Shown piece by piece: positions 6,445 to 12,411 of a DNA stretch of 64,000 nt. Every line of letters starts with the position of its first letter. The stretch's first letter is position 1. Both the position numbers and the translations under genes were made by a program. The notes under the pieces are model-generated. The model did not search any database. It saw nothing but the letters and a program-made list of their open reading frames with translations, and had not been told where the DNA came from. This stretch comes from Candidatus Bathyarchaeota archaeon B24 (GTDB lineage Archaea > Thermoproteota > CALKCG01 > B24): positions 35,282-99,281 of the forward strand of contig LUCB01000007.1 in NCBI GenBank assembly GCA_001593865.1. The letters are read 5' to 3'.

Positions 6445-7940
<1,496 letters not shown>

Positions 7941-8082: not shown

Positions 8083-10067
8083 ACACGTGGCGGCTGCTGG
8101 GTTCCCGAGTAGACCCGGCACGCTAAGCCGCCTGGTGGATGGCTCGGCTTGGGCGCCGAGGAAGGGCGTGGCAAGCTGCGATAAGCCCCGGGGAGGCGCA
8201 TGCAGCCTTAGATCCGGGGATCCCCGAATGGGACCTCCTGCCATGGGTTAATAGCCCATGGCGCTCCCACCCTCCTCGGAGGGGGGAGTGGGAACCCCCC
8301 GAACGGAAACATCCAAGTAGGGGGAGGAAAAGAAACCATCATGGGATTCCCTGAGTACCGGCGAGGGAAAGGGGAGGAGCCCAAACCGAACCCCTGGGGC
8401 TGACAAACCCCACGGGGATGTGGTGTAGAGGCTCAGCCTATAACGCCCACCACCCTGGGAAGCCGAAGTGGCCTGGAACGGCCCGCCATAGAGGGTGATA
8501 GCCCCGTAGGCGTAACCAGGGTTAGTGGGCTGGCTGAGCCGGAGTACCACACCTTGGTTTTGGTGTGGGAATCTGGGTGGAACCAGCATCCAAGGCTAAA
8601 TACGTCCCAAGACCGATAGCGCACTAGTACGGTGACGGAAAGCTGAAAAGCACCCCGGAAGGGGGGTGAAAAGAGCCTGAAACCAGGCGGCGATATCCGT
8701 GTGGGGCCCGAAAGGGTGGATCCACCCCGAAGGAAGCCGTGGCGACACGGTTGTACGAGGGGTGGGGACCAGGGTCCCACGTTCCGTTTCGAACCACGGG
8801 CCGGGGAGTTCACCTCCACGGCGAGCTTAAGGGCTTTAAAGCCCGTAGGCGGAGGGAAACCGACAGGTCCGCAGCCGGGCCGCGAGGCTCGGTGAGGGAC
8901 GGGGTCTGAAAGGGCCCGGAGTCGTGGGGGTGATAACCAGAAACCGGGCGATCTAGCCCTGGGCAGGGCGAAGCCGGGCGAAAGCCCGGTGGAGGCCCGA
9001 AGGGATGTTGACGTGCAATTCGCTCCTCTGACCTGGGGCTAGGGGCCAAAAGCCAATCTAGCCCGGTGATAGCTGGTTCCTCCCGAAATGGGTCGCAGCC
9101 CAGCCTCAGGCGAGGTAGCCTAGGGGGTAGAGCACCGATAGGGTGGCAAGGGTCCGAAAGGGCCCACCACCCTTTCGAACTCCGAATCCCTAGGCTCCGT
9201 AGACCCTGGGAGACGGGCGTCGGGGGGTAAGCTCCCGAGCCGCGAGGGGAACAACCCGGACAGGGGTTAAGGCCCCTAAATGCCGGCTAAGTGTTAACGC
9301 GAAGGGAGTCCCCAGCCTGAGACAGCTGGGAGGTAGGCTTAGAAGCAGCCACCCTCTAAGCAACGCGTAACAGCGGACCAGCCGAGGCTGGGGGCCCCGA
9401 AAATGGACGGGGCTTAAGCCGGCTGCCGATACCCCTGGGCCCGGCGTACACGCGCCGGGTTGGTAGGGAGGCGTCGCGGCTGGGTAGAAGCCGAGCCGTA
9501 AGGTTCGGTGGACCGGCCGCGAATGTAGATCCCGGTGGTAGTAGCAGCAAAGAGGGGTGAGAATCCCCTCCGCCGCAGGGGCCAGGGTTCTCCGGCAATG
9601 CTCGTCAGCCGGAGGTTAGTCGGTCCTAAGGCGGCCCTTAACCGGTCGCCGCCGAAAGGGAAACCGGTTTATATTCCGGTACCGTAGGGGTACGTGCGGC
9701 GACGCAGGCTCCCAACCTGACGCCTCCGGGTAGGCTGAGTGGGGTTGCCGCCCCATTTAACCGCTGAAGCCTGGGGAGTGCCGTAAGGGCGAGAACCAGG
9801 TGAAGGCGGGAATAGCCTCCCGCATAGGGGGGTTCAGCCGATCCCGGGGGACAGGGAAAAGGGTTGGGAGAAGGATCCCCTACGACCGTACCTAGAACCG
9901 ACACAGGTGCCCCTGGGTGAGAAGCCTAAGGCGTGTCGGGTCAACGCGGGTGAGGGAATTCGGCAAATTAGCCCCGTACCTTCGGAAGAAGGGGTGCCTG
10001 CGGTCTTAGCCCACGAAGGCTGGGACTGCAGGTCGCAGTGACAAGGGGGCCCCGACTGTTTAATAAA

Positions 10068-10691
10068 CGGGTAGAGACGCCGGATGAGGCTGAAGAATTT
10101 TAAATAGACCTCGTCTTCATTAAGAGATATGATAATGAGTAGTGAACAGCGAAATGACGCATATATCATGGGATTATTTTATGGAGACGGCACAACCTAC
10201 AAGACGAAGAAAGGCGCCTATCAGGTTTGGATAGACCAGTCAGATAAAAACAAGGATATACTAGAATATGTGGCGGTACCTAAGCTTAGGCTAATGAACG
10301 TCAAACTGTTCTTCTATCAATTTATTGATAGAAGACATCGGTTAAAGAAATGGAGATTGGCTCTTTATTCAAAAACGTTCTTTGATAGATTAAAAAAGGT
10401 CAAGCGAGATCCTTTAGGATATTTAAAGACGCTTAACGATGATGAAGTAAGGTATTTTATTGCAGGCTTGTTCGACGCTGAAGGCACTAAGACCGATAGA
10501 CTAGTTATATATAACAGAAATCTCGAACTCTTACAGGAGATAGGAAGACGACTTAGCAATTTTAATATTCACTCTAAAATTTACAAGTTCGGCTCAATTT
10601 ATGGTTTACAAATTCACAGGAAAAGCTCTGTGAAGATTTTCCTTAAAATAATACCGTCTTACAGGTTGACGGCGTCCTCGCCCGGTTAAAA
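10068..10691 (+). mobile_element. 23S rRNA intron 1 (archaeal-type) encoding a LAGLIDADG endonuclease
   Basis: Interrupts conserved TTTAATAA|AACATAGG; ends contain CGGG..GACGCC / GGCGTC..CCCG complementary strands; exact junction ambiguous within an A run. Confidence 0.9.
10129..10689 (+). CDS. LAGLIDADG homing endonuclease (intron 1)
   Basis: Two motifs: AYIMGLFYGDGT and YFIAGLFDAEGT. Confidence 0.9.
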   Translation: MIMSSEQRNDAYIMGLFYGDGTTYKTKKGAYQVWIDQSDKNKDILEYVAVPKLRLMNVKLFFYQFIDRRHRLKKWRLALYSKTFFDRLKKVKRDPLGYLKTLNDDEVRYFIAGLFDAEGTKTDRLVIYNRNLELLQEIGRRLSNFNIHSKIYKFGSIYGLQIHRKSSVKIFLKIIPSYRLTASSPG

Positions 10692-10817
10692 AACATAGGT
10701 AGCCGCAAGCCCGAAAGGGTGTGTACGGCTGCTGAATCCTGGCCAGTGCCGGTACCTAAAACCCGGGTCCAACCGGGCTAAGGGCCGGTAAACGCCGGGA
10801 GTAACTCTGACTCTCTC

Positions 10818-11377
10818 AACGGAGCCGCCTCGCCGTCGAATAGATTTAAGAGAGTTCTGATGGTATGAACATTAGTAGTGTTGAGTGAGGATTATACGAA
10901 AGGATATGTTTCAGGTTTTATAGACGCTGATGGAAGCTTCTCAGTAAGCATCAAGGTTCAAAGAGATGTCCGCTATGGTGTCAGAATAGACCCAGTGTTT
11001 AGCGTGACCCAGAGAAACAGGGAAGTTCTAGAATTTCTTAGAAGAGCTTTAGGCTGTGGTAGGATTATTAAGAAGCCCGGTCAGGAAAACTTATGGCTGT
11101 ATATCGTGGATAGAGGAGCTTAACGGTAAGCTACTGCGGTTTCTAGAAGATGGATGCCGGCTGATCGTTAAGGATAGGCAGTTGAAGCTCTTTACCGAAA
11201 TAGTAAAGGGGCTTATCGAGAAGCAACACTATAGTTATGAAGGAATTAAACAGCTTGTTCATCTATCTTATGAGCTTTCATCTTTAGGCGGTAAAGCCGT
11301 AAGGCGTAGAAGCCTGAACGAGGTTCTCACGATAATAGAGGAATATGAGATGAGACGGCGGGACGCTCCGGGAGAAA
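10818..11377 (+). mobile_element. 23S rRNA intron 2 (archaeal-type)
   Basis: Interrupts GACTCTCTC|AAGGTAGCC (near E. coli 1923-1927); CGGAG..CGCCGTC / GACGGCG..CTCCG complementary ends. Confidence 0.88.
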
Positions 11378-11382
11378 GGTAG
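10878..11382 (+). pseudogene. LAGLIDADG homing endonuclease (intron 2), frameshifted
   Basis: GYVSGFIDADGSFSVSI in ORF 10878..11123; the C-terminal half (IEELNGKLLRFLEDG...) continues in another frame (11056..11382). Confidence 0.75.
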
Positions 11383-12411
11383 CCAAATGCCTTGTCGGAT
11401 GACATCCGACGTGCATGAATGGATCAACGAGGGCCCCGCTGTCCCCACCCGGGACCCGGTGAAGCTACCTGGTGGTGAAAAGTCCACCGTCCCCCAGCGG
11501 GGTGAGAAGTCCCCGTGGAGCTTTACTGCAGCCTGTTGTTGGGGTATGGCTGTGGATGCGTAGGGTAGGTGGGAGCCTTTGAGCCAGCCCTTCCGGGGGC
11601 TGGGGAGGCGCCGATGAAACACCACCCTTCCACGGCTGTACCCCTAACCTGGGTGCCAAACCCGGGGACAGCAGCAGGTGGGCAGTTTGCCTGGGGCGGC
11701 GCCCCCTTGAAAAGATATCGAGGGGGCCCTAAGGCCAGCTCAGGCGGGTCGGAAACCCGCCGTAGAGGGCAAGGCCAAAAGCTGGCCTGACTGGGTCCTT
11801 CACAGTAAGGGACCCAGGGGTGAAAGCCGGGCCTAGCGATCCTCCATGACCCCACTGGTGGGGGCTGGAGGTGACAGAAAAGTTACCCCGGGAATAATTG
11901 GCTTGTCGCGGGCGAGAGTTCACATCGACCTCGCGGCTTGGTACGCCGTCGTCGTCCCTTCCCATCCTGGCGGTGCATAAGCCGCCAAGGGTGAGTCTGC
12001 TCGCCTATTAAAGGGGAATGCGAGATGGGTTTAGACCGTCGTGAGACAGGTCGGACTCTACCTGCTGGGGGTGCTGGCCGCCTGAGGGGAGCCCGTCCTC
12101 AGTACGAAAGGAACGGGGCGGGGTGGCCTCTGGTGTACCAGCTGTCCGGTAGGGCAAGCTGGGCAGCCACGCCGCTGGGGATAAGGGCTGAAGGCATCTA
12201 AGCCCGAAGCCCCTCCCGAAAATAGGCGGCCATTCCTAGGCGTAGGAGGCCCGGCGACGGGTCTCATGCCTAGGACGAGGGCTGGGGTAGAACACCCCGT
12301 TGATGGGGTGGGGGTGTAAGCCGGAAGGTCTTCGGACCGACCGGTTCAGCCCGCCACTCCCAATCGCCCGAGGTGCTGGGTCGAAAAAGGAGCCTAGCAG
12401 CTGCGTGAAAT

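What the first reader, a model, noticed from the sequence alone, without database searches (positions are those of the whole stretch)
11501..11517. Nascent-chain sensor nucleotides 2062, 2503 and 2609 all replaced by non-consensus bases
GGTGAGAAGTCCCCGTGG aligns so that A2062 is U (11510) and C2055 is U (11503). Together with A2503U (11949) and U2609A (12055), the tunnel-entrance residues implicated in arrest-peptide and macrolide sensing are all changed. The structural A2062-A2503 contact becomes U-U. The 2057-2611 pair would be A-U, consistent with the alignment register.
Basis: partly seen in the sequence, partly recalled or inferred. Interest (0 to 1): 0.8.

Follow-up and report, generated by a model that had tools for sequence, protein, structure and literature searches.

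The report
Archaeal ribosome with rebuilt active centre

Summary
The bases are as stated: U2055 (11503), U2062 (11510), U2503 (11949) and A2609 (12055) in the only 23S gene found in a Thermoproteota genome. Grouping them as 'nascent-chain sensors all replaced' does not hold. In up to 146 Thermoproteota 23S sequences, U2062 occurs in 39% (about 10 changes on the tree), 2609 is usually A (15 changes), and 2055 is A, C, G or U. Only A2503U is unusual. It follows its neighbour rather than 2062: every non-A2503 sequence has C2504 (21 of 21), while three have A2062. The real event is larger. Of 219 positions invariant in canonical-PTC relatives and E. coli, the window changes 11, ten of them in the peptidyl transferase centre: G2447A, C2452U, A2453U, U2500C, A2503U, U2504C, G2509U, U2511C, C2573U, C2579A. 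I call this 'Type II'; it recurs in a second archaeal class. A related 'Type I' set is in Pyrobaculum and allies, and a divergent active site is already published for Pyrobaculum calidifontis (Nissley 2025; citation only seen). The window's order also carries sarcin-ricin loop G2661A, seen in no other sequence sampled. Verdict: real, probably functional, new variant of a known kind.

The parts
8111..12383 (+). 23S rRNA gene (archaeal LSU), single copy, two intron-like inserts carrying LAGLIDADG genes
   Evidence: Rfam RF02540, 2757 bits, model 1-2987; only match in the genome
11498..11518 (+). Domain V strand E. coli 2050-2070; U2055 at 11503, A2057 11505, G2058 11506, U2062 11510
11884..11911 (+). 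PTC strand E. coli 2438-2465: A2447 (11893), U2452 (11898), U2453 (11899)
   Evidence: invariant G, C, A in 61 canonical relatives and E. coli
11934..11964 (+). PTC strand E. coli 2488-2518: G2499 (11945), C2500 (11946), U2503 (11949), C2504 (11950), U2509 (11955), C2511 (11957)
11991..12066 (+). A-loop and 3' PTC strand E. coli 2545-2620: U2550 (11996), U2573 (12019), A2579 (12025), A2609 (12055), U2611 (12057)
   Evidence: 2509/2579 switch together G-C to U-A
12101..12112 (+). Sarcin-ricin loop AGUACGAAAGGA with G2661A at 12108
   Evidence: A in all 5 readable sequences of the window's order, G in 137 others

Best explanation
The window encodes a working archaeal ribosome whose peptidyl transferase centre has been rebuilt as a set. 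Bases that hold the A-site cleft in place (2447, 2452, 2453, 2499, 2500, 2504, with 2509-2579 and 2573 behind them) were exchanged together so that the contacts are replaced rather than lost. The C2452-U2504 pyrimidine pair becomes U-C, the A2453-C2499 wobble becomes U-G, and G2509-C2579 becomes U2509-A2579. A2503U goes with the change at its neighbour 2504. A2062U is a frequent, probably near-neutral tunnel-wall change, and A2609 is the ordinary state of the phylum. Shown: base identities, single gene found, conservation across two families of the order, the joint distribution over up to 146 relatives, and recurrence in another class. Inferred: that the pairs form as written, that the ribosome is catalytically normal, and that 2062U is near neutral here.
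For: Register from two methods. Ten of 11 changed invariant sites lie in PTC segments. Joint states are nearly all-or-none over 146 rows: 2452/2504 are UC, CU or CC, never UU; 2447G goes only with purine 2453 and 2447A only with pyrimidine 2453; 2452U goes with 2573U in 18 of 18 readable rows; 2509/2579 are U-A, G-C or G-U only; non-A2503 goes with C2504 in 21 of 21. The contacts were described independently in other ribosomes: 2504-2452, 2504-2500, 2500-2452, 2500-2055 and 2499-2453 hydrogen bonds (PMC4652758); 2504 pairing with 2447 and 2452 (PMC7555685). E. coli A2062U ribosomes keep about 94% activity, and 2503 and 2504 tolerate change (PMC7049736). The core is separable from the sensor changes in this clade: G006 has the rest of the core (without A2503U) with A2062 and A2503. 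Type II recurs in a second class; a single Type II clade is rejected in the careful tree (p 0.004) but not in two quick trees (p 0.275; 0.657).
Against: No structure, expression or activity data for this lineage, which is known only from draft genomes, some of them metagenome-assembled. U2453-G2499 is not isosteric with A+-C. U2511C faces A2577, a C-A mismatch if the model pair 2511-2577 holds, in all 19 rows with C2511 where both are read. Few independent origins, so covariation cannot be made statistically significant on the tree. Within the other Type II clade 2499 is U, giving U-U at 2453-2499.
Confidence: 0.8

Rival explanations
1. Nascent-chain sensing was lost or retuned: 2062, 2503 and 2609 changed together as a functional unit at the tunnel entrance.
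For: U2062 and U2503 appear together on the branch to the window's family, since G006 has neither; 18 of 21 sequences with changed 2503 have U2062.
Against: 2609 and 2062 change independently many times; three sequences have U2503 with A2062 (L037, L207, L209); changed 2503 tracks C2504 in all 21. No archaeal arrest peptide depending on these bases is known to me.
Confidence: 0.07
2. The PTC segment moved between the two classes by gene transfer or recombination, rather than arising twice.
For: Nine identical substitutions in two classes; quick trees without PTC columns do not reject one Type II clade (p 0.275, 0.657).
Against: The careful tree rejects it (p 0.004); the clades differ at 2499 (G against U), 2550, 2464-2486 and 2661.
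Confidence: 0.2
3. Heat adaptation drove the changes, as proposed for A-loop cytidines in Thermoproteota (PMC9976906). This concerns the cause and does not exclude the best explanation.
For: Many Type I lineages are hyperthermophiles (general knowledge); Type I rRNA fragments are GC-richer (mean 0.662 against 0.623).
Against: Type II rRNA is not GC-richer than canonical (0.618 against 0.623), and several Type II changes replace G or C by A or U.
Confidence: 0.2
4. Pseudogene, chimera or assembly error.
For: Two intron-like inserts, one with an apparently broken endonuclease gene; draft assembly in 37 contigs.
Against: Only 23S copy found, whole model matched at 2757 bits, Type II core in four genomes of two families.
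Confidence: 0.03

Closest known systems
Divergent archaeal active site of the Pyrobaculum calidifontis ribosome (Nissley et al. 2025, Nat Microbiol 10:1940; PDB 9E71), taken to be 'Type I' here
   Same: Shares G2447A, U2500C, U2504C, G2509U and C2579A with Pyrobaculum and its allies; [quoted passage not shown] The paper itself was not available.
   Different: Type I has C2453, A2501, C2452, C2573 and A2503; the window has U2453, C2501, U2452, U2573 and U2503, plus C2511 and G2499. Whether the paper also covers the window's type could not be checked.
Thermoproteota A-loop C2554/C2555 variants (Nissley et al. 2023, PMC9976906)
   Same: Same phylum; the window has C2554.
   Different: A different element; 2555 is U in the window, which also has U2550 opposite C2558.
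Laboratory PTC mutants of E. coli (PMC7049736)
   Same: A2062U and changes at 2503 and 2504 are tolerated one at a time.
   Different: The window combines about ten PTC changes, including C2452U and G2447A, in a natural ribosome.

Membership tests
Pyrobaculum-type divergent PTC (Type I signature as read from named Pyrobaculum and Thermoproteus loci here) | G2447A, U2500C, U2504C, G2509U, C2579A | tested here: met
Pyrobaculum-type divergent PTC (Type I signature as read from named Pyrobaculum and Thermoproteus loci here) | A2453C and C2501A with C2452 kept | tested here: not met
   window has U2453, C2501, U2452
Pyrobaculum-type divergent PTC (Type I signature as read from named Pyrobaculum and Thermoproteus loci here) | uL3 finger RWHKHRKG with the tryptophan of GPW lost | tested here: not met
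   window uL3 reads HKSRKGVRKIGTLGPW; the Type I feature is my own reading of five readable proteins, and may not be a defining one
Pyrobaculum-type divergent PTC (Type I signature as read from named Pyrobaculum and Thermoproteus loci here) | Rearranged PTC base triples in the structure | not testable with these tools
   needs a structure; triple rearrangement is recalled from the abstract, not read here
Canonical archaeal PTC | G2447, C2452, A2453, U2500, A2503, U2504, C2573 | tested here: not met
   all seven differ
Functional archaeal 23S rRNA | Full-length match to the archaeal LSU model, single gene, conserved in relatives | tested here: met
Concerted loss of nascent-chain sensor bases | 2062, 2503 and 2609 change together and are otherwise conserved | tested here: not met
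   2062 and 2609 vary independently

The most novel reading that the evidence does not exclude
A second, undescribed kind of divergent active centre (U2452/U2453/C2500/C2504/U2573, usually with U2062 and U or C2503) arose at least twice in archaea, in different classes. In the window's order it is combined with G2661A in the sarcin-ricin loop, so that two of the most conserved functional elements of the large subunit rRNA are altered in one living lineage.
Probability: 0.4. Interest if true: 0.75.

Novelty: new variant of a known kind. Interest (0 to 1): 0.55.

Why it matters
The peptidyl transferase centre is usually treated as nearly frozen since the last common ancestor. A lineage in which ten of its normally invariant letters are exchanged as a set, and in which a similar set recurs in another class, gives natural experiments on which contacts matter and in what order they can be swapped. 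It also warns against reading single bases such as 2062 or 2609 as functional signals without a phylum-wide background.

Tried and rejected
Rfam family search over 60 relatives failed; replaced by DNA searches. An exact PTC string of the window had no hit in named genomes; a looser C2504 pattern gave 23 stretches and the organism names. The first alignment mixed strands and was redone. Independent-contrast tests of 2503 with 2062 and with 2504 gave too few pairs for significance. A uL16 loop comparison showed no type-specific change. Co-change of uL3 with Type II was considered: only the window's clade has Gly in place of the usual Thr at the finger, the other Type II clade does not; three uL3 reading frames picked by the script (G004, G135, G043) were not uL3 and were ignored. 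Papers: Bayfield 2004, Chirkova 2010 and Nissley 2025 are not held. Sampling of archaea outside Thermoproteota was not possible beyond the Rfam consensus, which keeps A2062, C2452, A2503 and U2504 as conserved letters.

Full report
Observation. The window holds an archaeal 16S (6445-7937) and 23S gene (8111-12383; 2757 bits). It is the only 23S match in a 1.73 Mb, 37-contig genome. Alignment to E. coli K-12 rrlB with relatives and the Rfam model agree on the register. A2057-U2611 is also as stated and is the norm in the phylum.

Background test. I aligned 128 Thermoproteota sequences from the genome search and named contigs, later 146. A few are the same genome reached twice (for example L005 and L036), so counts slightly overstate independence. 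U2062 is in 56 of 145 readable rows, with about 10 changes on the tree. 2609 is A in 88, U in 46, G in 8, C in 1, with 15 changes. 2055 is C 68, A 67, G 6, U 4. So three of the four flagged bases vary within the phylum, also on canonical backgrounds. A2503 is the exception: 125 A, 19 U, 2 C.

What changes with 2503. Joint counts are 2062/2503: UU 16, UC 2, AU 3, UA 38, AA 85, CA 1. A Fisher test on the 128-row set gives p = 0.0002 but ignores descent; on the tree only 2-4 independent contrasts exist, so it cannot be called significant. By contrast, every non-A2503 sequence has C2504 (21 of 21), and three of them (L037, L207, L209) have A2062 and an otherwise canonical PTC. The constant partner of changed 2503 is its neighbour 2504. 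This too rests on few origins.

The larger event. Among 219 sites (2000-2650) invariant in 61 canonical relatives and equal to E. coli, the window changes 11: U2291C and ten PTC sites, G2447A, C2452U, A2453U, U2500C, A2503U, U2504C, G2509U, U2511C, C2573U, C2579A. I call this Type II. Type I (G2447A, A2453C, U2500C, C2501A, U2504C, G2509U, C2579A) is in Pyrobaculum, Thermoproteus, Caldivirga, Vulcanisaeta, Thermocladium, Culexarchaeum and others. Published contacts link these very sites: hydrogen bonds 2504-2452, 2504-2500, 2500-2452, 2500-2055, 2499-2453 (PMC4652758, simulations of the H. marismortui subunit), and 2504 pairing with 2447 and 2452 (PMC7555685). In the data 2452/2504 are never UU, 2447 and 2453 switch class together in all rows, 2509/2579 stay paired, and 2452/2573 switch together.

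History. Type II falls in two groups: IIa, the window's order (G000, G001, G002, G006), and IIb, thirteen rows in the careful tree from another class, which also contains canonical members. The window's class has only seven held genomes. The careful tree without PTC columns rejects one Type II clade (p 0.004); two quick trees do not (p 0.275; p 0.657). Two origins are favoured, transfer not excluded. In IIa, G006 has the core with A2062 and A2503, so both tunnel changes came later, or were reversed there.

Function. Nothing here measures activity. A single gene, a whole-model match and conservation across two families argue for a working ribosome. In E. coli, A2062U has about 94% activity and 2503 and 2504 tolerate change, while C2452G is nearly dead (PMC7049736). 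I therefore read 2062U as near neutral and the core as a compensated set; that step is inference.

Known context. A divergent archaeal active site has been published for P. calidifontis (Nissley et al. 2025; seen only as a citation; content recalled, not read). I could not check whether it covers Type II. I therefore file this as a new variant of a known kind.

Extra. All five readable sequences of the window's order have sarcin-ricin loop G2661A, against G in 137 others. E. coli with A2660C/G2661A grows normally at 32-42 C and has a minor, cold-sensitive defect at 30 C (PMC5829649).

Noticed in passing
12101-12112 (G2661A at 12108): Sarcin-ricin loop reads AGUACGAAAGGA: G2661A in all 5 readable sequences of the window's order (4 genomes, two families) and in none of 137 other readable Thermoproteota rows.
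   Followed up: partly
10129-10689: Intact LAGLIDADG gene (186 aa, Pfam PF14528, E 4.7e-15) inside an intron-like insert of the 23S gene.
   Followed up: partly
10878-11382: Second 23S insert with a LAGLIDADG gene apparently split by a frameshift (81 aa with PF00961, then a 108 aa frame).
   Followed up: no
11996 (E. coli 2550): A-loop G2550U opposite C2558 (U-C) in all five readable sequences of the window's order; others are G-C (115) or C-G (8).
   Followed up: no
L004 (G002), E. coli 2253-2254: P-loop reads GGGAUGG, i.e. G2253A and C2254U, in this genome of the window's family; not in the window or in L003 or L005.
   Followed up: no
L007 and L129 (both genome G030): Two different 23S copies in one assembly, one with U2503 and one with C2503; a second operon or a misbinned contig.
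   Followed up: no
L033 and L076: A2058 instead of the usual G2058, on the Type II background.
   Followed up: no
L042, L051, L052: Contigs titled Campylobacteraceae, Actinomycetota and Caldisphaera carry 23S genes that group with Pyrobaculum, Thermoproteus or Vulcanisaeta; probably misbinned.
   Followed up: no
L148 (uL3 of the window's genome): uL3 finger: the window's clade has K(S/T)R(K/E)G where most others have KT at that place; Type I lineages have an inserted RW and mostly lose the tryptophan of GPW.
   Followed up: partly
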